Source of the DNA: Lepiota brunneoincarnata
Lineage: Eukaryota; Basidiomycota; Agaricomycetes; Agaricales; Agaricaceae
DNA length: 64,000 nucleotides
NCBI GenBank assembly: GCA_023014365.1
Contig: JAEBUN010000020.1
Span: forward strand, 744,001 to 808,000
Reading direction: 5' to 3'
Part shown: positions 1,998-48,912 of the stretch, in pieces
Numbering within the stretch: the stretch's first letter is position 1
How the letters are laid out: every line of letters starts with the position of its first letter
Made by a program: the position numbers and the translations under genes
The notes under the pieces: model-generated
Told to the model about the DNA's origin: nothing
Seen by the model: the letters and a program-made list of their open reading frames with translations, nothing else
The model's database searches: none

Positions 1998-2661
1998 TGT
2001 CATATCCACACCAAACCTAGAGCTTAACCATTAGGCTTCGGCTTCTCGACTCCACGTGTGCTCCACACGACAACCCTATGCCCTCCGACTCGGCCCCGAC
2101 TGGCTCCGACCGCAACCCCTTCGCCCCGATCACGCGACCTACCTCTACACGTGCCACGACCACCTGACCCTCGGTGCTCCCATTGTCCAGTTCTCCATTC
2201 TCCGTCCGTAATCAGAATATGTTACCAGTCTCCATACCCGTACCGGTCTCCATTCCATTCGAAATCATTCGTAATCCGCTTGTAACCATATGGGTCTCCG
2301 CTTCGCTCCGCACGTAGTCAGTACGAGTCATCATTCGTCGAGCTAGTAGTATATATACTGTAGGCACTTGGCTTGTACTCCTCAGTCTGATAATCGAATC
2401 GAGCAGCGGACCAGCTCCCTGTTCCATATCCTCTCCTCCCTTCTGCCTCGCTCCGCTTCGGCTCCGACTTCCTGAAATACGGACTAGGACAGTAGGAGGG
2501 CACAGCACATAAGCTGAGGCCGCAAGTCCAACCCCCCGCCCGACGTACTCCGCCTCGGTCCCGAAGTCTACGTACTGACTTCGCCCTGTCCCCCGGTTAC
2601 CTTATACCAAGGATACCACCCCGACCCTCCGCTTCGGTCCCGACCCGCACCGGCTCTAACA
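1998..2661 (+). repeat. 5' LTR of Gypsy-1A
   Basis: It runs from TGTCATATCC to GGCTCTAACA (TG...CA ends). A TATA box at 2350-2355 (within TAGTATATATAC) precedes the inferred transcript start at 2384. The family consists of at least two subfamilies: this copy begins with CACACCAAACC, whereas Gypsy-1B and the solo LTR at 10884 begin with CATGCCAACTC. Confidence 0.95.
2350..2394 (+). promoter_or_regulatory. LTR core promoter and start of the R region
   Basis: TATATA at 2350-2355 lies 34 bp upstream of AGTCTGATAAT at 2384-2394. That 11-mer is the exact reverse complement of the primer site at 2664-2674, so the transcript 5' end is inferred to be here. Confidence 0.65.
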
Positions 2662-2663
2662 GT

Positions 2664-2674
2664 ATTATCAGACT
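2664..2674 (+). other. Self-primer binding site of Gypsy-1A
   Basis: ATTATCAGACT starts two bases after the 5' LTR ends. It is exactly complementary to AGTCTGATAAT at the inferred mRNA start (2384-2394). This arrangement is that of Tf1/sushi elements, which prime reverse transcription with the 5' end of their own RNA instead of a tRNA. Confidence 0.7.
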
Positions 2675-2714
2675 CAAACTCCTCCTGTCCACCACACTCT
2701 GAATTTTTTTAACC

Positions 2715-4116
2715 ATAGTCTCTCGAACAGTTACCCGTACTCGCACTCTGGTAACTCCAGCCGCTCGCCGTAGCAAACGCATCACTCGACAACCTCCTTC
2801 CGAGGAACTGCAACCCGACTCCCCGAGGGCTTCTCGCTCTCACCAACAATCGATCGCACCCTCGACCCCAGACCGTTTCTCTGAAGATATACAACCTTCA
2901 GTATTCCGGACTCCCGACGGCCCCGACGACGGCCCCGACCCCAATCCTGATCCCAGCGACCCTGGTGATCCCGACGACTACCCTGACAATGGGGACGGGC
3001 CCCCGGGCAACGACGAACCATCAGACAACGGCGACAACAACAACAACATCCCACCTGGCAGCACCCGAGACGACCATGATAGACTCATACTCCGAGTTTT
3101 CCAACGCATAGCCGACCAAATGGACGGCCGTGGGAACTCTCAAGCCCCACAGCCTCCTCGATCTCCCCATACCAAAGCTCGCGAACCTGACATCTTTACA
3201 GGTTCCGACCCCGCCAAACTCAAACCCTTCCTCTTCCAATGTCGGCTCTATTTCCGTACTAACCCGGCCCAGTTCGCTATCCCCGCCACCAAGGTCAACT
3301 TCGCGTTGACATACCTCACAGGCGTGGCACAGCAACACTTCGAAATCGGCCTCGACGAGGCCGACAACCACGGAATAATACACGACTGGATCGAGGACTG
3401 GGACCAGTTCACCCTGGAACTGCAGACCAATTTCGGTCCCGCGGATCCGACCGGAGAAGCTGCTGAGCAGCTCGACTCCCTCCGAATGCGCTACGACGAG
3501 AAGATCGCCGTCTACAACGTCGATTTCCTCCGTCTAGCTGGCCAACTCCGCTGGGGTGACGAAGTATTCTGTCACCGCTACTACAAAGGCCTCCCCGACC
3601 GCATCCAGGACATTCTGTCCAATCGGCCCCGACGGCAAGCCCGACACCTTCATCGAAATGCGAGCAGCAGCGATGAAGATCGACGCTCGCTACTGGGAAC
3701 GCCAACGCGAGAAGGCCCGCGCCAAATCCGTTTCGGACCTGACCGCCTCTAGGAAACCTGGAGGTAACCCATCCCCTTCCACCTCGACCAACCCGCAACC
3801 TGCCGCCAAGCCTGCCAATAATAACAGAGGCAGCACGCCCAACACCAGCCTCAAGGGCAATCCGCCCAACCCGTCCGCCGGTCAGAAATCGGCCCCGCCC
3901 AAATCCGACCTTACTAGTAAACTTGGTAAGGACGGTAAATTAACCCCCGAGGAACGTCAACGACGTTTCGACAATAACCTCTGCCTTGTCTGCGCAGATC
4001 CCAATCACAGGGCTGCTAACTGCGACAAGAAAAAATTCCCTGATGCCAAGGCTAAAGGCCGACAGGCTCAGCTCCCCGAGACAGACGCGCCGGCTCTCCC
4101 GAGCTCGGAAAAATAG
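2715..4116 (+). pseudogene. gag: Gag of Gypsy-1A, with a lost start and frameshifts
   Basis: The reading frame begins at 2715, where ATA stands in place of the ATG found in Gypsy-1B (39051). An acidic, Pro/Asp/Asn-rich N-terminus is followed by a retrotransposon capsid region (around DIFTGSDPAKLKPFLFQC, 3190-3240) and a C-terminal zinc knuckle [14 protein letters not shown] near 3985. A run of four C at 3627-3630, against three in Gypsy-1B, shifts the frame in the middle of capsid. A second indel near 4088-4095 separates gag from pol: in Gypsy-1B the two lie in one frame here, so the ancestor probably made a single Gag-Pol polyprotein. Translation stops at the TAG at 4114. Gag packages the RNA; the damage should make this copy non-autonomous. 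Confidence 0.85.
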
Positions 4117-7100
4117 TCGGCGGTCCTCAGGCCTCTGCACAGACTGAGGATCGCATTGAACTCTGCTGTGCTCCAGAGAGTTTCCGTCTCAATGCGTCTG
4201 CTCTTTCCGACCCGAACTCCTTTCATATCACATTAACTTCTCCTTTAATTACTTCTGTATCTTCTGTCTCCGCTTCCGTACTCTCCGCTTCGGACCCGAT
4301 TTCTACAACGGACAATGTAGTTAGTTCTGATTTCTCTTCTCTTTCTCCTTTCAAAGCCCTTGTTGATAGTGGTTCTACTCACTGTTTTGTGGACTCATCT
4401 TTTGTTCGTTCTCATAGTATTCCAACCTCGTCCATTCCGGCTATTGAACTTCGGTTATTTGATGGGACCTCAAATGCCTACATTACGGAGCTTGCGCAAC
4501 TGCCTGTATCTTTCCCCTCCGGTGAATCTATCATTTTGGACACTTATGTCACCCGGCTCGACTCTTCCTGTTCTGTGGTCTTAGGACACAACTGGCTCAC
4601 CCGCTACAATCCGTTGATTGACTGGGCTTTGGGCAGTATTACTTTCCGGCCATCCCTACTCGAGAATCCTGCTTCCGTCTCTACCTGCGTCGCACCCGCA
4701 TCGGCTCCGCCTATGGCCGCCCCTGACTCTCCTGACCTAGGTTCACCACCCCTGTCCGGGACCTCGTCCCAATCTGTCCCCCTTGCGAAACCGCACATCT
4801 CCTTGATAAACGCTCCTGCCTTTATCCGCGCTGCCAAGCTCCCTGGCTCCCAACAATTCCGAATCAATCTTTCCGCCACCTCCGCATCGGCCGCGTCCTC
4901 TGCTGTCTCCGAGGAACCGCCTGACCTCTCGTCCATCCCCGAGGAATACCACGAGTTCGCTGACGTTTTCAGTAAATCGCGTGCTGACACACTTGCTCCA
5001 CACCGCCCTTACGACCTCCAGATTAACCTAGAGGATGGCGGTCAGCCTCCGGTCGGTACCATTTACTCCCTTTCACAATCGGAGCTTGGAGCTCTACGTG
5101 ATTTTATTGACGAACATTTATCTATTGGTTTCATCCGCCCCTCCACTTCCCCTCATGGAGCCCCGGTCCTCTTCGTCAAGAAAAAGGACGGCTCCCTCTG
5201 CTTATGCGTTGATTTTAGAGGTCTCAACCGTATTACCAAGAAGGACCGCTATCCCCTTCCGCTCATCTCCGACCTCTTAGACTCCCCTCGCAAAGCTCGC
5301 GTATATACCAAGATCGACCTCCGCCACGCTTACCATCTTGTCCGCGTTGCTGACGGCGACGAATGGAAGACCGCCTTTCGGACCCGCTACGGCTCCTTCG
5401 AATGGATGGTTATGCCTTTCGGCCTCACCAATGCCCCCGCCACCTTCCAGCGGTTCATGAACGATATATTCAAGGACATGCTCGACGTCTGCGTTACTAT
5501 CTACCTTGACGACATTCTGATATACTCCGACAACCATAGTATCCATCGTGACCAAGTCAAGGAGGTCCTCAAGCGGCTCCGCCAACACGGTCTATACGCC
5601 CGCCCTGACAAATGCCAGTTCCACTCTGACACAGTGGAATATCTCGGCTACATTCTCTCCCCCGACGGCCTCCGAATGGACCAATCTAAAGTCAAGACCA
5701 TCCAGGAGTGGCCTGAGCCTAAGAAAGTCAAGGACATCCAGTCCTTCTTAGGCTTCGCCAATTTCTACCGTCGCTTCATTCACGGATACTCCGACATCGT
5801 CGTTCCGCTCACTCGCCTCACCCGCAAAGACGTGAAGTGGAATTTTACTGATGATTGTCGCGAGGCCTTTAACTCCCTGAAGGAAGCATTTATCTCCGCC
5901 CCCGTCCTCACTCCTTGGGTCCCCGACGCTCAGATCATTGTCGAGACCGACGCCTCCGACTACGCCCTTGCGGCAATCCTCTCTATCGTCACCGACGATG
6001 GGGAGGTCCATCCCGTTGCATTCCATTCCCGCACCTTTAACACGGCCGAACTCAACTATGACACTCACGACAAGGAACTCCTGGCGATATTCGAAGCCTT
6101 TCGCATCTGGCGGCACTATCTCGAAGGTGCCCCCCTTGCTATTGATGTGGTCACTGACCACAAGAACCTCGAATACTTCTGCACCACCAAGATCCTGACT
6201 CGCCGCCAAGCTCGTTGGTCCAAGTTCCTATCCCAATTCCACCTCGTCATCCGTTTCCGACCCGGCCGCCTTGGCACCAAGCCTGACGCCCTAACTAGAC
6301 GATGGGACGTCTACCCTAAAGGGGGGAATAGCGACTATGCATCAGTCAACCCGCACAACTTCCGGCCTGTGTTCACTCACGAACAGCTCGCGGCCTCCGT
6401 CCGTGCCACCACTCTTTACGCCCCTTCCCTTCGCGCAGCTGTAGTCATGGACCTCGATCAGCTACACCGCGATATTCTCGCCGCCCTACCAGCGGATCCG
6501 ACTGCTTCCGCCCATCTTGCCAGCCCAGAAGGCCGTTGGTCAGTTAATGATAAAGGTTTCCTCCTCTTAGACGACAGAATCTACGTCCCTGACACTGACA
6601 ATCTCCGACTTCGGGTCCTTCAGTACAAGCATGATCACGTCCTAGCCGGCCACTTCGGTCAGAATAAAACGCTGGAACTCATCCGGCGCGAATACACCTG
6701 GCCTAGCGTCCGCACCTTCGTCAAGGATTTCTGTAAGTCTTGCGTCACCTGTATGAGGTCTAAACCCCAGCGCCATCGCCCCTACGGTCTCCTTAAGCAA
6801 CTCCCCATCCCCGAACGCCCTTGGAATTCAATCTCCATGGACTTCATCGAAAAACTTCCCGCCTCCTCCGGCTATGACGCCATCCTGGTAATCGTTGACA
6901 GACTCACCAAGCAATCCGTCTTCATCCCGACTTATGATACCGTCACCTCCTCCGACCTCGCCCGCTTATTCGTCCTCCATGTCTTCTCCAAGCACGGCGT
7001 ACCCGAACATGTTACCTCCGACCGCGGCTCCGAATTCGTCTCCCACTTCTTCCGCTCATTGGGACAAGCCCTTGACATGAAGCTACATTTCACCTCGGGC

Positions 7101-7916
7101 TACCATCCAGAAGGTGACGGACAAACGGAACGCACCAACCAGACCCTCGAACAATACCTTCGGGTCTATTGTAACTACCAACAGGACAATTGGTCCGAAT
7201 TACTACCCCTAGCTGAGTTTGCTTACAACAACGCTCCTAGTGCCACCACCGGTATCTCCCCATTCTTCGCTAATAAAGGATACCATCCGAACATCACAGT
7301 TCATCCTGAACGCGATCTTGCCTCCGCCCGGGCCCGCCATTTTGCTGTTGATCTCGACGACCTACATACCACCCTGAAGTCCGAAATAGCGCTAGCCCAG
7401 CAACGTTATCAGACCTCCGCCGACGCCCGCCGACTCCCCGCCCCGGACTTCAAGGTTGGACAAAAGGTATTCGTGAAAGCCCAATTCTTCCGCACCACCC
7501 GTCCCTCCAAAAAACTCTCCGAAAAGTACCTTGGGCCTTATGAGATCATTGCACAAGCAGGTACTCACTCCCTTACACTCCGACTTCCCGACTCCATGCG
7601 TGGAGTACACCCAGTCTTCCATGTTTCCATGCTCGAACCAGCCACACCTAACACCATACCCGCCCGATCGGATCCGCCGCCCGCGCCGGTTTCCATTGAC
7701 GGTGAACCAGAATACGAGATTGCCCGCATCGTCGACTCTAAGATCGATCGGCGCCGCGCGTGCAAGCTCCTCTATAAAGTCATCTGGTTAGGTTACGAAG
7801 ACACTGAAGAAGAGTCCTCGTGGTTGCCAGCCACCGAGCTTGAACATGCTATAGATCTCGTAGAGGCTTTTCATTCCTCTTACCCTGCAAAGCCTGGTCC
7901 TCTTCACTCACTTTGA
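4101..7916 (+). CDS. pol: Pol of Gypsy-1A: protease, RT, RNase H, integrase, chromodomain
   Basis: The pol frame is uninterrupted from at least 4101 to the TGA at 7914-7916. In order it shows: an aspartic protease with [10 protein letters not shown] (about 4357); reverse transcriptase with YLDDILIY (about 5503); RNase H with VETDASDYALAA (about 5940); the integrase zinc finger (HDHVLAGH, then CKSCVTC, 6630-6760); and a catalytic core with SMDFIEKLP, TSDRGSEF and the glutamate of GDGQTERTNQ. A GPY/F-like segment (KYLGPYEI, about 7525) and a chromodomain (YEIARIVDSK to WLPATELEHA, 7710-7860) follow. Chromodomains steer integration to modified histones. No start codon belongs to it alone; it was probably made by fusion with gag. 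All catalytic residues I can check are present. Confidence 0.93.
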   Translation, partial: ELGKIVGGPQASAQTEDRIELCCAPESFRLNASALSDPNSFHITLTSPLITSVSSVSASVLSASDPISTTDNVVSSDFSSLSPFKALVDSGSTHCFVDSSFVRSHSIPTSSIPAIELRLFDGTSNAYITELAQLPVSFPSGESIILDTYVTRLDSSCSVVLGHNWLTRYNPLIDWALGSITFRPSLLENPASVSTCVAPASAPPMAAPDSPDLGSPPLSGTSSQSVPLAKPHISLINAPAFIRAAKLPGSQQFRINLSATSASAASSAVSEEPPDLSSIPEEYHEFADVFSKSRADTLAPHRPYDLQINLEDGGQPPVGTIYSLSQSELGALRDFIDEHLSIGFIRPSTSPHGAPVLFVKKKDGSLCLCVDFRGLNRITKKDRYPLPLISDLLDSPRKARVYTKIDLRHAYHLVRVADGDEWKTAFRTRYGSFEWMVMPFGLTNAPATFQRFMNDIFKDMLDVCVTIYLDDILIYSDNHSIHRDQVKEVLKRLRQHGLYARPDKCQFHSDTVEYLGYILSPDGLRMDQSKVKTIQEWPEPKKVKDIQSFLGFANFYRRFIHGYSDIVVPLTRLTRKDVKWNFTDDCREAFNSLKEAFISAPVLTPWVPDAQIIVETDASDYALAAILSIVTDDGEVHPVAFHSRTFNTAELNYDTHDKELLAIFEAFRIWRHYLEGAPLAIDVVTDHKNLEYFCTTKILTRRQARWSKFLSQFHLVIRFRPGRLGTKPDALTRRWDVYPKGGNSDYASVNPHNFRPVFTHEQLAASVRATTLYAPSLRAAVVMDLDQLHRDILAALPADPTASAHLASPEGRWSVNDKGFLLLDDRIYVPDTDNLRLRVLQYKHDHVLAGHFGQNKTLELIRREYTWPSVRTFVKDFCKSCVTCMRSKPQRHRPYGLLKQLPIPERPWNSISMDFIEKLPASSGYDAILVIVDRLTKQSVFIPTYDTVTSSDLARLFVLHVFSKHGVPEHVTSDRGSEFVSHFFRSLGQALDMKLHFTSGYHPEGDGQTERTNQTLEQYLRVYCNYQQDNWSELLPLAEFAYNNAPSATTGISPFFANKGYHPNITVHPERDLASARARHFAVDLDDLHTTLKSEIALAQQRYQTSADARRLPAPDFKVGQKVFVKAQFFRTTRPSKKLSEKYLGPYEIIAQAGTHSLTLRLPDSMRGVHPVFHVSMLEPATPNTIPARSDPPPAPVSIDGEPEYEIARIVDSKIDRRRACKLLYKVIWLGYEDTEEESSWLPATELEHAIDLVEAFHSSYPAKPGPLHSL

Positions 7917-7986
7917 GTTACTGACCACACATCGCACCAAGAAACAACCATGTATTAAACAAACCAAAAAAAACAACCCCGTACAA

Positions 7987-8066
7987 CTACCTATCGGTGT
8001 CGTCTCCAGAGAGCCCGGGCGACCCATTCACTTCTTCCATCAAATCCTGCACCTCCTCCTCCGAAG
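7987..8066 (-). pseudogene. Last-exon remnant of the antisense gene of Gypsy-1
   Basis: On the minus strand this reads SEEEVQDLMEEVNGS and ends DDTDR-stop (TAG at 7987-7989). It matches the C-terminus of the antisense gene in Gypsy-1B (SEEEV, then MMEDAAV, then NDTDR-stop). The rest of the gene is missing: the sequence jumps from TCCGAA to TGGGCCCC, joining points about 1.06 kb apart in Gypsy-1B. Confidence 0.75.
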
Positions 8067-8109
8067 TGGGCCCCGGTCTAGACCGCCTTGGGCCTCGAGG
8101 CTCGGCCCT

Positions 8110-8122
8110 AAAGGGGGGGCAC
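8110..8122 (+). other. Polypurine tract of Gypsy-1A
   Basis: AAAGGGGGGGCAC lies directly before the 3' LTR, the usual place for plus-strand DNA priming. The same tract precedes the 3' LTR of Gypsy-1B at 45526-45538. Confidence 0.8.
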
Positions 8123-8786
8123 TGTCATATCCACACCAAACCTAGAGCTTAACCATTAGGCTTCGGCTTCTCGACTCCACGTGTGCTCCACACGACAACC
8201 CTATGCCCTCCGACTCGGCCCCGACTGGCTCCGACCGCAACCCCTTCGCCCCGATCACGCGACCTACCTCTACACGTGCCACGACCACCTGACCCTCGGT
8301 GCTCCCATTGTCCAGTTCTCCATTCTCCGTCCGTAATCAGAATACGTTACCAGTCTCCATACCCGTACCGGTCTCCATTCCATTCGAAATCATTCGTAAT
8401 CCGCTTGTAACCATATGGGTCTCCGCTTCGCTCCGCACGTAGTCAGTACGAGTCATCATTCGTCGAGCTAGTAGTATATATACTGTAGGCACTTGGCTTG
8501 TACTCCTCAGTCTGATAATCGAATCGAGCAGCGGACCAGCTCCCTGTTCCATATCCTCTCCTCCCTTCTGCCTCGCTCCGCTTCGGCTCCGACTTCCTGA
8601 AATACGGACTAGGACAGTAGGAGGGCACAGCACATAAGCTGAGGCCGCAAGTCCAACCCCCCGCCCGACGTACTCCGCCTCGGTCCCGAAGTCTACGTAC
8701 TGACTTCGCCCTGTCCCCCAGTTACCTTATACCAAGGATACCACCCCGACCCTCCGCTTCGGTCCCGACCCGCACCGGCTCTAACA
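8123..8786 (+). repeat. 3' LTR of Gypsy-1A
   Basis: 664 bp, almost identical to the 5' LTR and ended by CTCTAACA, followed by the duplicated target CATGT at 8787-8791. Confidence 0.97.
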
Positions 8787-10883: not shown

Positions 10884-11544
10884 TGTCATATCCATGCCAA
10901 CTCAGAGTCTAATCATTTAAACTTCGGCTTCTCGACTCCACGTGTGTTCCACACAACAACCCTCTGCCCTCCGACTCGGCCCCGACCTGCTCCGACCGCA
11001 ACCCCCTGCCCCGATCACGCGACCACCTCCACACGTGCCATGGTCACCTGGCCCTCGGTGTCTCATACCCCCGTCTCCATTTCCTGTCCGTAGTCAAGAT
11101 ACGTTATTAGTCTCCATACCTGTACCCATTTCCATTCCATTCGTAATCCGTTTGTAATCCGTTTGTAACTAGATCGGTCTCCGCTCTGCTCCGCACGTAG
11201 TCAGTACGAGTCATAGTTCGTAAGGCCAGTAGTATATATACCATAGGTACTTGGCTTGTACTCCTCAGTCTGATAATTGAATCGAGCAGCGGGCCAGCTC
11301 CCTGTTCTCTATCTTCTCCTCTCTTCTGCCTCGTTCCGCTTCGGCCCCGACTTCCTGAAATACAGACTAGGACAGTAGGAGGGCACAGCACATATGCTGA
11401 GGCCGCAAGTCCAACCCCCTGCCCGACGTACTCCGCCTCGGTCCCGAAGTCTACGTACTGACTTTGCCCTGTCCCCCGGTTACCTTATAACAAGGTTACC
11501 ACCCCGACCCTCCGCCTCAGTCCCGACCCGCACCGGCTCTAACA
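10884..11544 (+). mobile_element. Solo LTR of the Gypsy-1 family (subfamily B)
   Basis: 661 bp from TGTCATATCC to CTCTAACA, flanked by the duplicated target GTTAG (10879-10883 and 11545-11549). It matches the Gypsy-1B LTRs more closely than those of Gypsy-1A. It retains the TATA and AGTCTGATAAT blocks, so it may still be a promoter facing the plus strand inside a minus-strand gene. Confidence 0.95.
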
Positions 11545-12711
11545 GTTAGTGGGGTTGCTCTTGCTATAAGCTTAGTAACAGCGGCTTCATGTTCTTGGAA
11601 GAATGGTTCCCAAACACTTCTCCCAGACCTGGTGGACTCCATCCTCACTGTTCCTGCCTTAGAGAGATGCAAGTGTACATCTGGCAAGTTTCCACCCATG
11701 GGCTCATCGATTGGCATGTTATAATTGTCATCCAGTGGCTGTGTTTGAAAAGAATCTGTTTCCCATGGCATAAACTCATCACTGGTATCAAACTCGGAGG
11801 ATTGGAGTGGCTGTTCACGGGATATGTCAGAAAATGTGATGAGTGGCCGGTGGTCAGTAGCAGGGAAGTGAGGTGCCTTTGCAATCCAAGTGGTGGCCAG
11901 TTGAAGTTCATGGGCACTTGGTGCAGGATACGATGGATCTGTTGTAGGACTCCAATGGTACCATACAGGAACATTGATATTCACAAAATAGGCAGGACTT
12001 GGCTGCAATGGCTGGGGCGGGAGATGGAGAATCACACCTGCCCAGCTTATATCCTAGTATCTCTGTAACAGAGGTGCCATCCACAGACTATCAAGCAATG
12101 CCTGATTGAACTTGTGTGCCATTGTGACCTGAACAACCCATTTCATGGGTGTGATTCCCTCATGATAGTTAGGATCTATGATCTTGTGGATTTGCCAATA
12201 GAGTAAGCCTAACCAAATACTAAACCAGTTGTGTGCTTTGGTAGCGAGATACCATGTGTGTAGTTCCATGCTGTGTTTATTTTGATACCTGAAACTCGAA
12301 GGGGCAAACAGACAAACAAAACTCAGGTCATTCTCAATCTTCAGAATTCCTGTGACTTCATCCAGACACTTCTTGATCACTATCCACTGCAAAACAACCT
12401 GTACTGGTAAGAAAAATCCATCTGAATTTGTATACAAAATTTTTTGTGGGATATGGGCCAATGACTCTACCAATATGCCACTGTAAGCCACAGGCATGGT
12501 GGGGACACAGCTCAACCACTCTGTTTGGGCAGTCCACCATCGTGGTTGTTGGAAATTGTCTGCTATCGAGGCACCTAGCACAAATGTACAAAAGCCCTCA
12601 GATGTATTATCCTCCACCACTGTGAAGTTGTGCTGGCTGTTGGGTGAATAGAAGGTGTCACCATTCACAATGGTGACTTGTCCTGCCATGGCAGATATTC
12701 TGCCAGCCAAT

Positions 12712-38335: not shown

Positions 38336-38997
38336 TGTCATATCCATGCCAACTCAAAGTCTAATCATTTAAACTTCGGCTTCTCGACTCCACGTGTGTT
38401 CCACACAATAACCCTCTGCCCTCCGACTCGGCCCCGACCTGCTCCGACCACGACCCACTGCCCCGATCACGCGACCACCTCCACACGTGCCGTGGTCACC
38501 TGACCCTCAGTGTCTCATACCCCCATCTCCATTTCCCGTCCGTAGTCAAGATACGTTATTAGTCTCCATACCTGTACCCATTTCCATTCCATTTGTAATC
38601 TGTTTGTAATCCGTTTGTAACTAGATCGGTCTCCGCTTTGCTCCGCACGTAGTCAGTATGAGTCATAGTTCATAAGGCCAGTAGTATATATACCGTAGGT
38701 ACTTGGCTTGTACTCCTCAGTCTGATAATCGAATCGAGCAGCAGACCAGCTCCCTGTTCTCTATCCTCTCCTCTCTTCTGCCTCGCTCCTGCTTCGGCCC
38801 CGACTTCCTGAAATACGGACTAGGACAGTAGGAGGGCACAGCACATACGCTGAGGCTGCAAGTCCAACCCCCCGCCCGATGTACTCCGCCTCGGTCCCGA
38901 AGTCTACGTACTGACTTCGCCCTGTCCCCCGGTTACCTTATATCAAGGTTACCACCCCAACCCTCCGCCTCGGTCCTGACCCGCACTGGCTCTAACA
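38336..38997 (+). repeat. 5' LTR of Gypsy-1B
   Basis: 662 bp, TGTCATATCC to CTCTAACA. The inferred transcript start AGTCTGATAAT is at 38719-38729. Confidence 0.95.
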
Positions 38998-38999
38998 GT

Positions 39000-39010
39000 A
39001 TTATCAGACT
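39000..39010 (+). other. Self-primer binding site of Gypsy-1B
   Basis: ATTATCAGACT, two bases after the LTR end, complementary to 38719-38729. Its conservation in the older copy supports a function. Confidence 0.65.
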
Positions 39011-39050
39011 CACACTCCTCCTGTCCACCACACTCTGAATCTTTCTAACC

Positions 39051-42000
39051 ATGGTCTCTTGAACAGTTACCTGTACTCGCACTCTGGTAACTCCAGCCGC
39101 TCGCCGTAGCAAACGCATAACTCAACAACCTCCTTCTGAGGAACTGCAACCCAGCTCCCTGAGGGCTTCTTGCTCTTGCCGACAACCAGTCGTGCCCTCA
39201 ACTCCAGACCATTTTTCTGAAGATATACAACCTTCATTATTCCGGACTCCTGACGGCCCCGACAATGGCCCTGACCCCAATCCTGATCCCAGCGACCCTG
39301 GTGATCCCGATGACTATCCTGACAACGGGGACGGGCCCCTGGGAGACGACGAACCATCAGACAACAGCGACAACAACAACAACATTCCACCTGGCAACAC
39401 CCGAGATGACCATGATAGACTCATACTCCGAGTTTTCCAATGCATAGCCGATCAAATGGACAGCTGTGGGAACTCTCAAGCCCCACAGCCTCCTCGAACT
39501 CCCTGTACCAAAGCTCGCAAACCTGACATCTTTACAGGTTCCGACCCCGCCAAACTCAAACCCTTCCTCTTCCAATGCCGACTCTATTTCCATACCAACC
39601 CAGCCCAGTTTGCAATCCCTGCCACCAAGGTCAACTTCGCGTTGACATACCTCACAGGCGTGGCACAGCAACACTTCGAAATCGGCCTCGACGAGTCTGA
39701 CAACCACAGGAATAATGCACAACTGGATCGAGGACTGGGACCAGTTCACCCTGGAACTGCAGACCAATTTCGGTCCCGCGGATCCGACCGGAGAAGCTGC
39801 TGAGCAGTTCGACTCCCTCCGAATGCGCTACGACAAGAAAATCGCCATCTACAACGTCGACTTTCTCCGCCTAGCTGGCCAACTCCACTGGGGTGACTGA
39901 AGTATTTTGTCACTGCTACTACAAAGGCCTCCCCGACCGCATCCAGGACATTCTGTCCAATCGGCCCGATGGCAAGCCCTGACACCTTCATCGAAATGCG
40001 AAGCAGCAGCGATGAAGATCGACGCTCACTACTGGGAATGCCAACGCGAGAAGGCCCGCGCCAAAGCCGCTTCGGACCTGACCACCTCTAGGAAACCTGG
40101 AGGTAACCCATCCCCTTCCACCTCGACCAACCCGCAACCTGCCGCCAAGCCTGCCAATAGTAACAGAGGCAGCATGCCCAACACCAGCTTCAAGGGCAAT
40201 CCGCCCAACCCATCTGCCGGTCAGAAATTGGCCCCACCCAAATCCGACCTTACTAGTAAACTTGGTAAGGATGGTAAATTAACCCCTGAGGAACGTCAAT
40301 GACGTTTCGACAATAACCTCTGCCTTGTCTGCGCAGATCCCAATCACAGGGCTGCCAACTGCAACAAGAAGAAATTCCCTGATGCCAAGGCTAAAGGCCG
40401 ACAGGCTCAGCTCCCTGAGACAGACACGCCTGACTCTCCCGAGCTCGGAAAAATAGTTGGTGGTCCTCAGGCCTCTGCACAGACTGAGGATCGCATTGAA
40501 CTCTGCTGTGCTCCAGAGAGTTTCTGTCTCAATGCGTCCGCTCTTTCCGACCCAAACTCTTTTCATCTTACATTAACTTCTCCTTTAGTTACTTCTTTAT
40601 CTCCTGTTTCCACTTCCATACTCTCCGCTTCGGACCCGCTTTCTGCAACAGACAATGTAGTTAGTTCTGATTTCTCTTCTCTTTCTCCTTTCAAAGCTCT
40701 TGTTGATAGTGGTTCTACTCACTGTTTTGTGGACTCATCTTTTGTTCGTTCTCATAGTATTCCAACCTCGTCCACCCTGGCTATTGAACTTCAGTTATTT
40801 GATGGGACCTCAAATGCCTACATTACAGAGCTTGCACAACTGCCTGTATCTTTCCCCTCCGGTGAATCTATCATTTTGGACACTTATGTCACCTGGCTCG
40901 ACTCTTCCTATTCTGTGGTCTTAGGACACAACTGGCTCACCCGCTACAATCCGTTGATTGACTGGGCTTTGGGCAGTATTACTTTCCGGCCATCCCTACT
41001 TGAGAATCCTGCTTCCGTCTCTACCTGCATTGCACCCGCATCGGCCCCGCCTATGGCCACCCCTGACTCTCCTGACCTAGGTTCACCACCCCTGTCCGGG
41101 ACCTCGTCCCAACCTGTCCCCATTGCAAAACCACATATCTCCTTGATAAACGCTCCTGCCTTTATCCGCGCTGCCAAGCTCCCTGGCTCCCAACAATTCC
41201 GAATTAACCTCTCCGCTGCCTCCGCGTCGGCCGCATCTTCTTCTGTCTCCGATGACCTGGTTGACCTCTCGTCTATCCCTGAGGAATACCATGAGTTCGC
41301 TGATGTTTTCAGTAAATTGCGTGCTGACACACTTGCTCCACACCGCCCTTACAACCTCCAGATTAACCTAGAGGACGGCGGTCAGCCTCTGGTCGGTACC
41401 ATTTATTCCCTTTCACAATCAGAGCTTGGAGCTCTACATGATTTTATTGACGAACATTTATCCATTGGGTTCATTCGCCCTTCCACTTCTCCTCATGGAG
41501 CCCTGGTCCTCTTCGTCAAGAAAAAGGACGGCTCCCTCTGTTTATGTGTTGATTTTAGAGGTCTCAACCGTATTACCAAGAAGGACCATTACCCCCTTCC
41601 ACTCATCTCCGACCTCTTAGACTCCCCTCGCAAAGCCCTGCAGTATATACCAAAATCGACCTCCGTCACGCTTACCATCTAGTCCGCGTTGCTGATGGCG
41701 ACTGAATGGAAGACCGCCTTTCGGACCCGCTACGGCTCCTTTGAATGGATGGTTATGCCTTTCAGCCTCACCAACGCCCCCGCCACCTTCCAGTGGTTCA
41801 TGAATAATATATTCAAGGACATGCTTGACGTCTGCGTTACTATCTATCTTGACAACATTCTGATATACTCCGACAATCACAGTATCCACCTGTGACCAAG
41901 TCAGGGAGGTCCTCAAGTGGCTCCGACAACACGGTCTATATGCCCGCCCCAACAAATGCCAGTTCCACTCTGACACAGTGGAATACCTCAGTTACATCCT

Positions 42001-44267
42001 TTCCCCTGATGGTCTCTGAATGGACCAATCTAAGGTCAAGGCCATCCAGGAGTGGCCGGAACCCAAGAAAGTCAAGGATATCCAATCCTTCTTAGGTTTT
42101 GCCAATTTCTATCGTCGTTTCATCCATGGTTACTCCGACATCGTCGTTCCGCTCACTCGCCTCACCTGCAAAGACGTGAAATGGAATTTCACTGACGAAT
42201 GCCGTGAAGCCTTTAACTCCCTGAAGGAAGCATTCATATCTGCCCCCGTCCTCACTCCTTGGGCCCCCGACGCCCAGATCATTGTCGAGACCGACGCCTC
42301 CGACTACGCCCTTGCGGCTATCCTCTCTATCATCACTGATAATGGGGAGGTTCATCCCGTTGCATTCCATTCCCGCACCTTTAACACGGCCGAACTTAAT
42401 TATGACACCCACGACAAGGAACTCTTGGCGATATTCGAGGCTTTTCGTATCTGGCGGCACTATCTTGAGGGTGCCCCTCTTACTATTGACGTAGTCACCG
42501 ACCACAAAAACCTCGAATACTTCTGCACCACCAAGATCCTCACTCGCCGCCAAGCTCGTTGGTCCAAGTTCCTATCCCAATTCCACCTCGTCATCCGGTT
42601 CTGACCCGGCTGCCTTGGCACCAAGCCTGACGCCCTAACTAGACAATGGGACGTCTACCCTAAAGGGGGGAATAGCGACTATGCATCAGTCAACCCACAC
42701 AATTTCTGACCCGTATTCACCCATGAACAGCTCGTGGCCTCTGTCCGCGCCACCACTCTTTACACCCCTTTCCTTCGCGCAGCTGTAGTCATGGACCTCG
42801 ATCAGCTACACCGCGATATCCTCACCACCCTACCAGCGGATCCGACCACTTCTGCCCACCTTGCCAGCCCAGAAGGCCGTTGGTCAGTCAACGATAAAGG
42901 TTTCCTCCTCCTAGACGACAGAATCTATGTCCCTGACGCCGACAATCTCTGACTTCGGGTCCTCCAGTACAAGCATGACCATGTCCTAGCTGGCCACTTC
43001 GGTCAGAATAAAATGCTGGAACTCATCTGGCGCGAATACACCTGGCCTAGTGTCCGCACCTTCGTCAAAGATTTCTGTAAGTCTTGTGTCACCTGTATGA
43101 GGTCTAAACCCCAGCGCCACCGCCCCTATGGTCTCCTCAAGCAACTCCCCATCCCTGAACGCCCTTGGAATTCAATCTCCATGGACTTCATCGAGAAACT
43201 CCCCGCCTCCTCCGGCTACGATGCCATCCTAGTAATAGTCGACAGACTCACCAAGCAATCCTTATTCATCCCCACCTATGATACCGTCACCTCCTCCAAC
43301 CTCGCCCACCTATTCATCCTCCACGTCATCTCCAAGCATGGCATACCCGAACATGTTACCTCCGACCGCAGCTCCGAATTTGTCTCTCACTTCTTCTGCT
43401 CATTGGGACAAGCCCTCGACATGAAACTACACTTCACTTCGGGCTACCACCCAGAAGGTGACAGGACAGACAGAACTGCACCAACCAGACCCTGGAACAA
43501 TATCTCCGGGTCTATTGTAACTACCAACAGGACAATTGGTCTGAATTACTACCACTAGCTGAGTTTGCTTACAACAATGCTCCTAGTGCCACCACCGGTA
43601 TCTCCCCGTTCTTCAGCTAATAAAGGATACCATCCAAACATCACAGTTCATCCTGAACGCAATCTCGCCTCCGCTCGGGCCCACCATTTTGCTGTTGACC
43701 TCGATGACCTACATACCACCTTGAAGTCTGAAATATTGCTAGCCCAGCAACACTATCAGACCTCCGCCGAACATCCGCCGACTCCCTGCCCCAGACTTCA
43801 AGGTCGGACAAAAGGTATTCGTGAAAGCCCAATTTTTCTGCACTACCCGTCCTTCCAAAAAACTCTCCGAAAAGTTCCTTGGACCTTACAAGATCATTGC
43901 CCAAGCAGGGACTCACTCCTTCACACTCCAACTTCCTGATTCCATGCGTGGAGTACACCCAGTCTTCCATGTTTCTATGCTTGAACCTGGCCACACCTAA
44001 TACCATACCAGCCCAATTGGACCCGCCACCTGCACCAGTTTCTATCGACAGCAAACCAGAATACGAAGATCAGCTCACATCATCGACTCAAAGATTGATC
44101 GGTGCCGCGCATGCAAACTCCTCTACAAAGTCATTTGGTTAGGTTATGAAGACACCGAAGAAGAGTCTTCAGTGGTTACTGGCTACCGAGCTTGAACATG
44201 CCATAGATTTAGTAGAGGTTTTCCATTCCTCTTACCCCGATAAGCCTGGCCCCCTCCATTCACTCTG
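39051..44267 (+). pseudogene. gag-pol: Gag-Pol of Gypsy-1B, many stops and frameshifts
   Basis: ATG 39051 is followed at once by TGA (39060-39062) where 1A has CGA. The zinc knuckle [14 protein letters not shown] is at about 40322, and gag continues in frame into pol ([14 protein letters not shown]), showing the ancestral Gag-Pol fusion. Protease [10 protein letters not shown] is at about 40697. The RT motif reads YLDNILIY at about 41845, with Asn for the second catalytic Asp. Integrase and chromodomain are recognisable to the TGA at 44265. In-frame TGA at 40300, 42018, 42602 and 42951 replace CGA, and frames jump at 39897, 39979, 41638, 41702, 41890, 43462, 43615 and 44167. It is dead. Confidence 0.92.
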
Positions 44268-44272
44268 AGTTT

Positions 44273-45405
44273 TCCACTGATCACCCACCACACCAAGAAA
44301 CAAAAAATTTATTGGACAAGTACAAACTACCTGTCCGTGTCGTTCCCAGAGGTGCAGGGCGGCACCGCCGCATCCTCCATCATACCTCACACCTCCTCTT
44401 CCGAAATGCCTCCAATGCTCTCCGACTCCTCCAACTCCTCCGACTCCTCCGTCTCCTCCGTCTCCGTAATACCCCTACTCGACCAGTTACCATCCACCTG
44501 TGCCTCCCAATGCCGCAACTGTTCATAGCAGGCCAGCTGTCAGCTCGAACCTTGTCTACCCTCTCCCCCAATCGAGTGATGGCCTGTGCAAGCCGCACCT
44601 CCATGATATTGACCCGCTTGAGGGTCTTCTGGTGCCCCTCCTTGATAAGTCGCTTCAGCTCTACGGGATCATTTGGTCAGCAAACCTCGCAGTCAGAAAC
44701 TCCTCACTCACCTTCAAATTGTTGGCCTGACATCCCCCCGGCCCCGCTCGGCTCCGTCTCCTCTTGACCCCCACACCATTTTTTCATTTTGCTGCACCAA
44801 CAGCAACTCCTGGTGTTACTAAAAAAACTATCAGTATGTAGCCTGGAAACCCTCAAAATGACTTACCCGCCGGCGACCTCACACGGGACCTCGTCTCGCT
44901 GGCACCTCCAGCAGGGGTTCTCGCCCCTGAATACGTTCGCATGGCCCCATCACAGGGCCGCCCTCGCCTTTGCCTTCCCCTTACCCTTATCCCCTGAATC
45001 CCCGGAGGCCTCCTCCTCCTCCTCCTCCTCATCTCTCGCCTCGTCCCTATCTGTGTATTCGGAATCCGACTCCTCCATATCTATCTGCATCGGTTCTTCC
45101 GACGGACGGCTCAACGAGGCCCCCGTAGTCGTTGCGACGAGTCGGGCCCGAATCGCCCGACGCTCTGCCTCGGCAGCCTCATCTTGTTGCCACCTGATAT
45201 CTTCTGCCATATGCTCTCTCACCCGCTCCTCCACTTGTCGCTGGTGCAGCGCTATCATCCGCTGCCGCTCCTCCTCCTCTCGTTGCTCCTCCTCCTCCAG
45301 CCTCTCGATTTCCAGCCGCTCTCGCTCCTCTCGCTCCGCCTTCTCCCTCAACAATTGCGCCTTGCGCTCCACAGTGGTCAGTTGTCGGGAGGGTTGTCTG
45401 CTCAT
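44273..45405 (-). pseudogene. Antisense gene inside Gypsy-1B: acidic coiled-coil protein with Zn(II)2Cys6-type cysteine spacing
   Basis: On the minus strand, ATG 45405 opens MSRQPSRQLTTVERKAQLLR. A long Glu/Arg coiled coil (residues about 10-75), an acidic segment and a basic KGKGKAKAR follow. After one TGA (44952-44950, probably an old CGA) comes WGHANVFRGENPCWRCQRDEVPC. A 57-bp intron (44866-44810, GTAAGT...CCAG) joins to SCCWCSKMKKWCGG. The cysteines follow C-x2-C-x6-C-x6-C-x2-C-x6-C, the pattern of fungal Zn2Cys6 DNA-binding clusters. A further intron (about 44710-44660) leads to LKRLIKEGHQKTLKRVNIMEV and, after a frameshift, an acidic tail SEEEV and NDTDR-stop. It is nearly complete but has one nonsense codon and one frame break. 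Role unknown: regulation of the element or of its host chromatin are guesses. Confidence 0.7.
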
Positions 45406-45457
45406 GGGAGTAAGAGGTCAAGTTGTGTTTTTTTTGGAATCGAACCAGTTCACCATT

Positions 45458-45465
45458 TTTATACC
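45458..45465 (-). promoter_or_regulatory. TATA box for the antisense gene
   Basis: TATAAAAA on the minus strand lies 53-60 bp upstream of the antisense ATG and just outside the 3' LTR, so the gene seems to have its own promoter. Confidence 0.5.
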
Positions 45466-45538
45466 CTGTCGGAACTTTCCGATGGGCCCCAGCCTAGACC
45501 GCCTTGGGCCTCGAGGCTCAGCCCTAAAGGGGGGGCAC

Positions 45539-46199
45539 TGTCATATCCATGCCAACTCAAAGTCTAATCATTTAAACTTCGGCTTCTCGACTCCACGTGT
45601 GTTCCACACAACAACCCTCTGCCCTCCGACTTGGCCACGACCTGCTCCGACCGCAACCCACTGCCCCGATCACGCGACCACCTCCACACGTGCCGCGGTC
45701 ACCTGACCCTTGGTGTCTCATACCCCCATCTCCATTTCCCATCCGTAGTCAAGATATGTTATTAGTCTCCATACCTGTACCTGTTTCCATTCCATTCGTA
45801 ATCCGTTTGTAATCTGTTTGTAACTAGATCGGTCTCCGCTTCGCTCCGCACGTAGTCAGTACGAGTCATAGTTCATAAGGCCAGTAGTATATATACCGTA
45901 GGTACTTGGCTTGTACTCCTCAGTCTGATAATCGAATCGAGCAGCAGACCAGCTCCCTGTTCTCTATCCTCTCCTCTCTTCTGCCTCGCTCTGCTTCGGC
46001 CCCGACTTCCTGAAATACGGACTAGGACAGTAGGAGGGCACAGCACATACGCTGAGGCTGCAAGTCCAACCCCCCGCCCAACGTACTCCACCTCGGTCCC
46101 GAAGTCTACGTACTGACTTCGCCCTGTCCCCCGGTTACCTTATATCAAGGTTACCACCCCGACCCTCCACCTCGGTCCTGACCCGCACTGGCTCTAACA
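45539..46199 (+). repeat. 3' LTR of Gypsy-1B
   Basis: 661 bp, ended by CTCTAACA and the target copy TCATG. It sits two bases upstream of the pogo-A start codon and may now act as its promoter. Confidence 0.95.
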
Positions 46200-46201
46200 T
46201 C

Positions 46202-48912
46202 ATGCCAGAGTGTACCCCATCCCTTTCCACCAACATTCCTGCACTCCCTCAGGAAGACTGCATTCAGCTTGCTATCACAGCTATCAGTGAGGCAGGCAAC
46301 ACAGCTGATGGCAAACCACAGTTGTCTTTGCATAAGGCTGCCAGCATGTACCAAGTGCCTTGTAGCATGCTTGGAGATCGTCTGAAAGGCCTCCCTACAC
46401 GTGCTGAAGCACATGCAGATCAGCGAGCGCTCTTGGCAGCTGAAGAAGAGGTCCTTGTGGAATGGGCAAAGGCGTTGGGCTATCGGGGAGTACCATTGAC
46501 ACATGCCACTCTGACTAAATATGCTTCTGAGATATCTGGAAAGCCCATCGGCAAGTCGTGGCCAAAGAGATTCCTTGCGAGGCACCCAGATCTCAAAGTG
46601 AAGGTGACATTGAGTTTGGAGAAATGCCATGCAACGGCGCTCAATAGGACAGCAGTTGATGGTTTCTATGATATTTTGGAGCAGGTGGTGCACGATTTTC
46701 AGATCAAGCCAGAGAACACGTGGAATATGGATGAGAAAGGTGTCCAGCTTGGCATTGGGGCGAAGGTGGCTGCAATTGTTGATCGTGACCAAGCAACGGT
46801 GTATTCTGTTGAAGATGGCAATTGTGAGCTTGTGACAGTCATTGAAGCAGTTTCGGCTAATGGAGCGGCACTCTTCCCATCGGTCATTTTCCAGGGAGTG
46901 TGACGCAATCCAGAATGGGGACGGCCTGAAAACAATCCAGATGCCACTAGGTATGTAATTGGTCTGCGTTCAATTGAGCAGTATTTGATGTTTTGTCTAG
47001 TGTTTCCGTCTCTCCAAAGGGGTGGACTGACCAGGAGCTTGGCTTGAAATGGCTCGAGCGGGACTTTGAGCCAAATACCAGACCAGAGACATCCCAGGAG
47101 TACTGTCTTCTGATTCTTGATGGACACAATTCCCACTGTACCTATCAGTTTATCAAATTTTCTGCCCAGCACCATATCATTATCATCTGCCTTCCCTCAC
47201 ATACTACACACGCATTGCAGCCTTGTGATGTCAGCGTATTTGGTCCGCTCGCCCGTGCGTGGAAGTCCCAGGTCACACGAGCATCACAGGAAAACATAGC
47301 AATCACGAAGGATAATCTACTGCTTTACTACCACAATGCTCAAAGTCTCGCGCTCAAACCAACAACAATCCAATCAGCATTCAGAAAGATGGGAATCTAC
47401 CCCCTTGATCGCAATGCAATCCCTCTATCCACCTTTGAACCTGCAAAAAACACAACAACTCAAGCTGCGCAACCAATACCAGCTTGGCTTCCATCACTAC
47501 TCACACCAACACCAGATCCATCCCCCGCTGCCTCAGCGGCGATGACACAAGTGCTGGACATGTCACCTCCTGGGAATTCTGATGCCCCTGAACCTGGGAG
47601 CACAGATGACAGCATGCCTGAACCACCACCACCCAACAGTGAACTTGCAGCCACAGACACAGCTGACACTGAACCCAGTCAACCTACACAACAATATCAT
47701 ATCAAAGTACCACGTCCACTTCCATACACGGTATCACGGCGAGCACTCTGGGAAGAGAACAAGATGTTATGAGCAATCATTGCTGAGGTCGGCGAGGTGC
47801 TGGAGCAAGACTATGCCCAAATGAAGTTGATGGACCTTGAAAATGAGAGGTTGCGTCAAAAGGCATTTGCAAAGGGCCAACAGAGGATGGCAAAGCGGAA
47901 GCTCACCTCTGGCCAGGCACGCCACATGACAGCACCTGAGATGATTGATTTGCTCGCCAGACAGACATGGGAATCAGCTATGGCTGATGTATTCAAGGAA
48001 GCCTCAGAGTGGTTCAAGGTTAGGCAAAAGGCAATTGATGACCACCATAAAGCGCTCGCAGCTGAGAGGAAGTTGGCCGATCGGGAGTGGAAGGTAGCAG
48101 AGCAGCAGGCGAAGAAAGCTGAAACCAAAGCTGAGAAGGCCAGGCTACAGGCTGAGCAAATGGCAACACGTGGGCGTGGAAGAGGTAGCCAAATCACTTG
48201 CGCACGTGGCCGTGGTCGAGGTCGAGGTCGTGGGCATGGGCGTGGGCGTGGGCGTGGGCAAGGTGGGGGCCAAGGTGGTGCAGAACTGACCGTGGCGGGA
48301 AGGCATACTGACAGTGATGAGTCTGGATTTCAATTTTCAGACTCTGATTCTGTTCCAACAGATCATGAAGACATACCAAACCCCGATGCACCACCTGAAT
48401 GTCGCCTTCCATGTGAATGCAGAGCCAGAGCACCTCGATTTCTACCAAGCAATAATGAGGAGGAGGACGCCCCACCTCTGGTCAACCATCCACGGCCCAG
48501 ACCTCGACCAATTCATGCACGACAACCACCAGCAGAACAGGAAACCATTTCTGCTGGCGATCTGGGAATCCCATTTCCGAGAGATGCAGGCGGCACCGCT
48601 ACAAGCCCACCACAATCAGATCATCATGAACTCAATACAGGAGAAAAAACCATACCGTTTGACACCACACCACAAGCTCCCGAGAACCCAGCTAATCCAA
48701 CCATACCACACGAGCCAGGACACCCTACGATCAATATAGGGGGTCCAAAAGCGACAGGTGGGGATGGGATTCAGTTTGACCATAACGAGGCAGGTCCTTC
48801 AATGACTTTTCTGGGCAGTGAACCAGGACCCGGGCTAATGGCTAGCGAGGATGTCGCAACTAGCAGGCCACAAGTGAGGCGTAGTAGACGCCTTGCTACA
48901 AAGATAAAATAG
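46202..48912 (+). pseudogene. pogo-A: pogo-family DDE transposase with an RG-rich C-terminal extension
   Basis: ATG 46202 (MPECTPSLSTN) begins a helix-turn-helix region (SLHKAASMYQVPCSMLGDRL) and a CENP-B-like second DNA-binding part (KSWPKRFLARHPDLK). The DDE_1 catalytic core shows NMDEKGVQLG (46726), LDGHNSH (47118) and LQPCDVSVFGPL (about 47217), giving a DD35D spacing. A 50-bp intron (46951-47000) is clear. TGA at 46901 and 47770 interrupt one continuous frame; both fit decay of CGA. After residue 500 comes a Pro/Thr linker, a Lys/Glu-rich helix (AEQQAKKAETKAEKARLQ) and a GRGRG block (48165-48270), then an acidic tail to 48912. If read without the stops it is about 880 residues, long for the family. 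It should cut and paste at TA. Confidence 0.85.
46951..47000 (+). other. Intron of pogo-A
   Basis: GTATGTAATT...TTTTGTCTAG, 50 bp, joins ...PDAT to SVSVSPKGWTDQEL in frame. Confidence 0.85.

What the first reader, a model, noticed from the sequence alone, without database searches (positions are those of the whole stretch)
44273..45465. Spliced antisense gene with a Zn(II)2Cys6-type cluster inside a Ty3/gypsy retrotransposon
Between pol and the 3' LTR of Gypsy-1B, on the opposite strand, lies a gene with a TATA box (45458-45465), a coiled coil, a basic patch and, across a clean 57-bp intron, cysteines at C-x2-C-x6-C-x6-C-x2-C-x6-C. That spacing is the established signature of fungal Zn2Cys6 DNA-binding proteins. 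A retroelement carrying its own reverse-facing putative DNA-binding protein could silence, activate or target itself. The intron must be on the antisense strand, so it would survive the sense RNA intermediate. The family may be known as hypothetical proteins without its link to the element being noted.
Basis: partly seen in the sequence, partly recalled or inferred. Interest (0 to 1): 0.87.

Follow-up and report, generated by a model that had tools for sequence, protein, structure and literature searches.

The report
Retrotransposon with reverse-strand zinc-cluster gene
A mushroom-genome jumping element carries, on its reverse strand, a spliced and selectively maintained gene for a zinc-cluster protein of the kind that usually reads CGG triplets, and the element is itself dotted with paired CGG sites at one fixed spacing, as if it encoded its own recognition system.

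Summary
The gene lies tail to tail with a chromodomain Ty3/gypsy pol. New here: the element is enriched for CGG-N2-CCG, an inverted CGG repeat of the type Zn2Cys6 dimers read. In the window 43 of 45 such sites lie in gypsy sequence; an intact pol frame has 8 against 1.1 expected, reached by 0 of 5000 synonymous shuffles; in young LTRs half-sites are conserved, spacers vary. A second, 22-kb gypsy lineage carries a different antisense Zn2Cys6 gene in the same place, without that dyad. Antisense accessory genes are known (Grande, Retand, Botrytis Boty/brtn); my searches found no Zn2Cys6-type one. Best reading: an element-encoded DNA-binding protein recognising its own family to activate or unsilence it. 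Transcription, zinc binding, DNA binding and function are inferred.

The parts
38336..46199 (+). Ty3/gypsy element Gypsy-1B, LTR to LTR, with 5-bp target-site duplication TCATG
   Evidence: LTRs 96.5% identical over 662 bp; TSD and boundaries read; protease, RNase H, integrase and Tf2-1-like SH3 matches in pieces of pol
38336..38998 (+). 5' LTR, with TCGGNNCCGA dyads at 38428, 38794, 38891
45539..46199 (+). 3' LTR, with dyads at 45996, 46093
45456..45463 (-). TATA box of the antisense gene, inside the element but outside the LTR
   Evidence: TATAAAA upstream of the ATG in 55 of 60 copies
44867..45405 (-). exon 1: E/R-rich helix, acidic stretch, basic KGKGKAKAR patch, first half of the cysteine cluster; premature stop in this copy
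44819..44866 (-). intron 1, 48 bp, GT-AG, splits the cluster
44712..44818 (-). exon 2: second half of the cluster (CRRCSKMKKRC in many intact copies)
44327..44660 (-). exon 3: amphipathic helix and acidic tail; frame changes in this copy
44308..44313 (-). AATAAA, just past the antisense stop codon
44001..44268 (+). end of pol (decayed chromodomain region), convergent with the antisense gene
   Evidence: sequence; the homologous end of Gypsy-1A matches Pfam Chromo at 33.7 bits (cut-off 25.1)
1998..8786 (+). Gypsy-1A: young relative (LTRs 662 of 664 identical, TSD CATGT), open pol frame, antisense gene almost wholly deleted, 23 CGG-N2-CCG sites
10884..11545 (+). solo LTR of the same family with three dyads

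Best explanation
The antisense gene encodes a nuclear, dimeric Zn2Cys6-like DNA-binding protein of the element. It binds inverted CGG repeats (CGG-N2-CCG) spread over the LTRs and body of its own family and keeps those copies transcribable, as activator or anti-silencing factor, in cis and in trans. Shown: the spliced gene, its conservation and purifying selection, and a dyad array selected at DNA level.
For: Intact spliced frames in 23 of 60 copies and pooled pN/pS 0.24 over 253 pairs; per exon 0.24, 0.16 and 0.41 over nine representatives. Conserved cysteines and introns. CGG-N2-CCG: 17 in Gypsy-1B against 1.5 expected, spacing 2 standing out among 0-16; 43 of 45 window sites, and 19 of 19 TCGGNNCCGA, in the 15.3 kb of gypsy sequence; 8 in the Gypsy-1A pol frame against 1.14, in all three codon phases, 0 of 5000 synonymous shuffles; highest-ranked of 53,248 dyads in pol under the synonymous null and in LTR+gag under a dinucleotide null. 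Half-site diversity in 25 young LTRs 0.022 against 0.094 at other CpG columns and 0.068 elsewhere, P 0.004; spacer 0.143. Genome: TCGGNNCCGA 1831 against 972 for its reversed control.
Against: No RNA, binding or methylation data. Cluster below the Pfam cut-off. No homologue of the protein found. Gypsy-1A kept its sites but lost the gene and still inserted recently, so the gene is not needed in cis by each copy. Under a dinucleotide null CGG-N2-CCG ranks sixth in pol, fourth in the gag region and fifteenth in the LTR alone; CCG-N7-CCG (2 of 5000) and CCG-N3-CGG (9 of 5000) are also over-represented in pol. The second gypsy lineage with an antisense Zn2Cys6 gene shows no CGG-N2-CCG in the 10.6 kb read. 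I know of no characterised Zn2Cys6 dimer reading a 2-bp spacing (recall).
Confidence: 0.45

Rival explanations
1. The dyads are docking sites for a host Zn2Cys6 transcription factor that drives the LTR, and the antisense protein does something else (for instance nuclear import or packaging).
For: The genome has its own Zn2Cys6 genes: 36 of the 81 places listed are marked over the Pfam cut-off. LTR dyads lie on both sides of the LTR's TATA-like stretch.
Against: Sites are spread through gag and pol, in all three codon phases, and are nearly absent from the other 44 kb tested in the window (one site in each of two control stretches).
Confidence: 0.22
2. The protein is a repressor of its own family (copy-number control): it binds the dyads and limits sense transcription, or the antisense transcript itself silences gag-pol.
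For: Convergent transcription could form double-stranded RNA; PMC7264820 (passages) raises this for plant antisense ORFs. Old copies carry many transition-type changes at CpG, consistent with methylation (by inspection).
Against: Protein-level selection is not explained by antisense RNA alone. Self-repression would not obviously favour accumulating sites inside coding sequence.
Confidence: 0.18
3. The dyads are unrelated to the protein: they reflect a composite GC-rich repeat (CCG-N3-CGG-N2-CCG) used at RNA or replication level.
For: CCG-N3-CGG is also enriched (14 in Gypsy-1A; 9 of 5000 shuffles in pol).
Against: Conserved half-sites around a variable 2-bp spacer fit a protein dyad better than an RNA element.
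Confidence: 0.12
4. The antisense frame is a passenger: a recently captured host gene or chance frame kept only by hitch-hiking.
For: No assigned function; no outside homologue found.
Against: pN/pS 0.24, in-frame exon lengths, conserved introns and cysteines.
Confidence: 0.03

Closest known systems
Antisense additional ORFs (aORF-3R) of LTR retrotransposons: maize Grande gene23, rice RIRE2, Silene Retand, PvRetro13 (PMC7264820 passages and sections 5 and 7; PMC11963269 passages)
   Same: Gene between pol and 3' LTR, antisense, conserved in the family, suspected nuclear or DNA-binding product, own upstream promoter in Grande
   Different: Those products have other domains or none (TRP28, SMC-like); here a Zn2Cys6-like cluster split by an intron, in a fungal chromodomain element, with a matching dyad array
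Boty/brtn of Botrytis cinerea (Zhao et al. 2011; not seen, known here only through PMC7264820, PMC8365987 and PMC4227169 passages)
   Same: Fungal gypsy element with CHROMO domain and an additional antisense gene
VANC anti-silencing proteins of Arabidopsis VANDAL transposons (PMC5735166 abstract; PMC10398659 listing)
   Same: Element-encoded protein with sequence-specific targets in its own family; targets multiply in the element
   Different: DNA transposons; unrelated protein; VANC targets often form tandem repeats, here single dyads are spread over LTR, gag and pol; demethylation untested here
GAL4-type Zn2Cys6 regulators (Pfam PF00172; PDB entries)
   Same: C-x2-C-x6-C ... C-x2-C-x6-C, helix after the cluster, CGG-type inverted repeats (the last from recall)
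   Different: Below the Pfam cut-off; the basic half (CRRCSKMKKRC) comes second, and the first half matches the second half of the Pfam profile (positions 15-32), hinting at swapped halves; spacing of 2 bp is short
HTLV-1 HBZ (recall, and named in PMC11963269 passages)
   Same: Antisense-strand nuclear regulator in an LTR element
   Different: bZIP protein of a retrovirus (recall); no relation claimed

Membership tests
Antisense additional ORF (aORF-3R) of LTR retrotransposons | Between pol and 3' LTR, antisense to gag-pol | tested here: met
Antisense additional ORF (aORF-3R) of LTR retrotransposons | Present and conserved in the family's copies | tested here: met
   40 scored copies by DNA, 347 exon-level matches at E<=1; 59 of 60 introns, 56 of 60 cysteine spacing
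Antisense additional ORF (aORF-3R) of LTR retrotransposons | Antisense transcript from its own promoter | not testable with these tools
   TATA and AATAAA in place; no RNA data held
Zn2Cys6 binuclear cluster (PF00172) | Six cysteines with family-type spacing | tested here: met
   22 of 23 intact copies and 56 of 60 overall
Zn2Cys6 binuclear cluster (PF00172) | Score above Pfam's gathering cut-off | tested here: not met
   14.4 and 7.6 bits against 21, so it is called Zn2Cys6-like, not filed as a member
Zn2Cys6 binuclear cluster (PF00172) | Binds two zinc ions and CGG-type DNA | not testable with these tools
   only the indirect dyad evidence
Zn2Cys6 binuclear cluster (PF00172) | Canonical order of halves (basic half first) | tested here: inconclusive
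   half 1 matches profile 15-32; half 2 best matches, among zinc-cluster chains, the first half of AlcR, at E above 1; half 1 also matches Pho7's first half weakly
Ty3/gypsy chromodomain element | RT-RNase H, integrase, C-terminal chromodomain | tested here: met
   Gypsy-1A pol pieces; 7837 of 7978 scored candidates at E<=1e-50 in a pol search, many of the listed ones with PF00385
VANC-type anti-silencing system | Element-specific targets multiplied in the element | tested here: inconclusive
   a dyad is multiplied in the element, but that this protein reads it is not shown
VANC-type anti-silencing system | Loss of DNA methylation on targets | not testable with these tools
   no methylation data
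Boty/brtn | Sequence homology to brtn | not tested
   brtn sequence not available to me

The most novel reading that the evidence does not exclude
Fungal LTR retrotransposons have at least twice acquired a reverse-strand, spliced Zn2Cys6 regulator between pol and the 3' LTR; in one lineage the element has evolved a dispersed array of the cognate CGG-N2-CCG dyad through LTRs and even coding sequence, with selection acting on DNA across codon phases. It would be an element-encoded self-recognition system, a retroelement counterpart of plant VANC, possibly with a half-swapped zinc cluster.
Probability: 0.4. Interest if true: 0.9.

Novelty: new variant of a known kind. Interest (0 to 1): 0.76.

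Why it matters
Antisense genes of LTR retrotransposons are known in several families, but their function is not (PMC7264820 passages and sections). A family whose antisense product resembles a DNA-binding class with a well-known kind of target, and whose own DNA is enriched for one target form, makes the question directly testable by ordinary binding assays. If confirmed it would show a retroelement encoding a sequence-specific protein for its own kin, and it suggests a function for other antisense ORFs.

Tried and rejected
Rejected: the 57-bp intron and the x6 middle spacing; an exon-3 arginine-rich patch as a protein feature (it comes from a shifted frame in the broken window copy); a TCGG-N6-CCGA repeat beside the antisense TATA box, present in the window copy but in none of the 59 other copies counted. 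Led nowhere: protein homologue searches (none at E<=0.001 among 492 candidates and 7991 scored). One search shows that the same database does hold fungal relatives of the pol, but many entries are from short contigs and introns may split this gene there, so absence is not shown. Viral contigs gave no relative of the pol. Structure prediction was not tried, because by its description the tool would not take the spliced protein. Eight more divergent copies (L068-L075) were only compared by tblastn and are in no count. L001-L008 are the same places as the window copy and later loci and were not counted twice. LTRs were found by pattern in 52 of 59 fetched copies (one search lists 55 LTRs with three from the window). 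The 25 LTRs are a set that I chose as young or intact; over all 55 the half-sites are more variable (0.118) than non-CpG columns (0.066) though less than other CpG columns (0.195), as expected of decaying copies but weaker support. Copies are related, so P values are guides only.

Full report
WHAT IS THERE. Gypsy-1B spans 38336-46199 with LTRs 96.5% identical over 662 bp and the duplication TCATG on both sides. Pieces of its decayed gag-pol match protease, RNase H, integrase and the Tf2-1-like SH3 domain. Its young relative Gypsy-1A at 1998-8786 has an open pol frame ending in a chromodomain. Downstream of pol, on the opposite strand, lies the gene in question. In the window copy it runs from ATG 45405 to a stop at 44329-44327, with TATAAAAA at 45463-45456 and AATAAA at 44313-44308. 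Pol ends at 44268, so the genes converge without overlap. The window copy is broken: a stop at codon 152 and single-base length changes in exon 3.

CORRECTED GENE MODEL. Forty copies were found by DNA similarity in the same genome, the window's included (only 40 were scored, so this is a lower bound); I fetched the other 39 and 20 more from the best exon-3 protein hits. Reading each copy by itself with the model exon / intron / exon / intron / exon (539, 48, 107 and 51 bp in the window copy), 23 of 60 give an uninterrupted protein of 313-328 residues: 8 of 40 in the first set, 15 of 20 in the second, which was picked from high-scoring hits and is therefore biased. Both introns are GT-AG in 59 of 60; exon 1+2 stay in frame in 55 of 60 although exon 1 varies from 527 to 574 bp among untruncated copies; intron 1 varies from 47 to 71 bp without regard to frame. 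The cysteines read C-x2-C-x6-C-x9-C-x2-C-x6-C in 56 of 60 copies; of the other four, L026 has the cysteines with one residue less between them.

SELECTION. Over all 253 pairs of the 23 intact copies pN/pS is 0.24; the median dN/dS is 0.14 in the 154 most diverged pairs. For nine representatives the true frame gives 0.24, 0.16 and 0.41 in exons 1-3. The other two forward frames give 0.77 to 3.6 and hold stops. Of the nine reverse-frame values seven give 0.57 to 3.2; the two lowest, 0.33 and 0.20, are in frames that I take to share third positions with the true frame, and they hold stops. Differences by codon position in exon 1 are 0.096, 0.099 and 0.282. Choosing intact copies does not select against amino-acid changes. 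So the gene was under protein-level selection during the family's history.

WHAT THE PROTEIN LOOKS LIKE. By inspection: a long E/R-rich helix, an acidic stretch, a KGKGKAKAR patch, the cysteine cluster, an amphipathic helix and an acidic tail. Pfam gives Zn_clus at 14.4 bits, under the cut-off of 21, and 7.6 bits in another copy. The first half alone matches profile positions 15-32, the second half of the profile. The second half (CRRCSKMKKRC) carries the basic residues that GAL4 has in its first half (GAL4 sequence), and among zinc-cluster chains best matches the first half of AlcR, at E above 1; the first half also matches the first half of Pho7 weakly. Swapped halves are thus suggested, not shown. 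No outside homologue was found, although the database holds fungal pol relatives, one named one being 81% identical over 91% in Leucocoprinus birnbaumii.

THE DYAD ARRAY. Zn2Cys6 dimers typically bind CGG triplets in fixed arrangements (established knowledge, recalled). I therefore counted CGG-Nx-CCG. In Gypsy-1B spacing 2 occurs 17 times against 1.5 in shuffles, while the other spacings from 0 to 16 occur 0-4 times. In the window 43 of 45 CGGNNCCG and 19 of 19 TCGGNNCCGA lie in the two gypsy copies and one solo LTR, 15.3 kb of 64 kb; two control stretches of 26.7 and 17.8 kb have one each. The open pol frame of Gypsy-1A has eight sites in codon phases 1,0,0,1,2,0,1,0; synonymous-codon shuffles average 1.14 and 0 of 5000 reach eight. 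Of 68 triplet arrangements tested, this is the only one never reached; CCG-N7-CCG (2 of 5000) and CCG-N3-CGG (9 of 5000) are also high. In a blind scan of 53,248 dyads it ranks first in pol under the synonymous null and first in LTR+gag under a dinucleotide null, but sixth in pol, fourth in the gag region and fifteenth in the LTR alone under that null. Genome-wide TCGGNNCCGA counts 1831 against 972 for its reversed control; spacing 3 gives 886 against 559, spacing 4 gives 633 against 734.

FOOTPRINT IN THE LTR. Intact LTRs have dyads near +93, +448 to +461, +545 to +558 and +624 to +637: 18 of the 25 young or intact set have four, 7 have three; of the other 30, 3 have four, 11 three, 4 two, 6 one and 6 none. 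At one place the spacer reads TC, TT or TA while CGG and CCG stay. In the 25, half-site diversity is 0.022, other CpG columns 0.094, non-CpG columns 0.068 (P 0.004 against matched random columns), spacer 0.143 (P 0.11). Over all 55 the contrast is weaker (half-sites 0.118, other CpG 0.195, non-CpG 0.066, spacer 0.123), as decayed copies lose CpG.

A COPY THAT LOST THE GENE. Between pol and the 3' LTR Gypsy-1A keeps only the last codons of exon 3 fused to the start of the antisense promoter region; the sequence GGGCCC is shared by both sides (my reading). One of 40 scored hits spans this junction. Its LTRs are identical at 662 of 664 positions and it is flanked by CATGT. So a copy without the gene could insert recently, which fits supply in trans, or dispensability.

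A SECOND LINEAGE. A search for Zn_clus found another repeated gene. Its cluster is CTTCAARKLECEPLGKGKKCRSCDLYNYPC (17.1 bits, also under the cut-off). Of 40 scored DNA hits 19 are 98-100% and 21 are 87-89% identical; protein searches report 133 and 143 exon matches, most of the listed ones without stops. At C12 it lies on the plus strand between a 1285-bp LTR (566910-568194) and a gypsy integrase frame on the minus strand (572605-574437); the partner LTR, 100% identical, is at 587754-589038. This makes a 22.1-kb element with an antisense Zn2Cys6-like gene between pol and 3' LTR. Only this one locus was checked for arrangement, and the 22 kb were not read throughout. It has no CGG-N2-CCG in the 10.6 kb read; whether it has another dyad is open.

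HOW IT MOST LIKELY WORKS. The antisense gene is transcribed from its own TATA box and spliced (inferred). The protein enters the nucleus, dimerises through the helix after the cluster and binds CGG-N2-CCG sites across the family (inferred). Because sites are spread over the body and not only at the promoter, I favour an anti-silencing or chromatin role like that of VANC (PMC5735166, abstract) over a simple promoter switch; repression or a host reader remain open. Antisense introns would survive the sense RNA intermediate, and they are in fact kept.

LITERATURE. Antisense genes in this position are known from plants and from Botrytis Boty (brtn) (PMC7264820 passages and two sections; PMC8365987 and PMC4227169 passages; PMC11963269 passages). 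The word antisense does not occur in the held main text of two papers on fungal LTR elements (PMC3248453, PMC2864245; word searches). Searches for antisense or Zn2Cys6 genes in fungal retroelements (open-licence library only) showed none of this type in their listings. Zhao et al. 2011 itself was not seen, so overlap with brtn cannot be excluded.

Noticed in passing
46202-47772 (+): Gypsy-1B sits directly beside a DNA transposon gene: the ORF piece 46202-46903 matches HTH_Tnp_Tc5 (28.7 bits, cut-off 22.2); pogo/Tigger-like by recall.
   Followed up: no
1998-8786: Gypsy-1A, young and with an open pol frame, has lost nearly the whole antisense gene in one deletion with GGGCCC shared at both sides.
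   Followed up: partly
L076, L078, L079 (G000:C12:566910-589038): A 22-kb gypsy element of another lineage with its own antisense Zn2Cys6-like gene and 100% identical LTRs of 1285 bp.
   Followed up: partly
L048-L067 against L013, L033: Copies with different exon 1 share nearly identical exon 3 (for example L049 and L059), suggesting recombination or template switching between subfamilies.
   Followed up: no
18421-18840 and 24544-24903; 14761-15756 and 28713-29704: Other repeats in the window: a roughly 30-bp-period array in two places, and a duplicated stretch 93-96% identical; nature not examined.
   Followed up: no
G000:C11:142944-143305: Another copy with the two ends of the pol-to-LTR region only about 150 bp apart, perhaps a second, smaller remnant of the antisense gene.
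   Followed up: no
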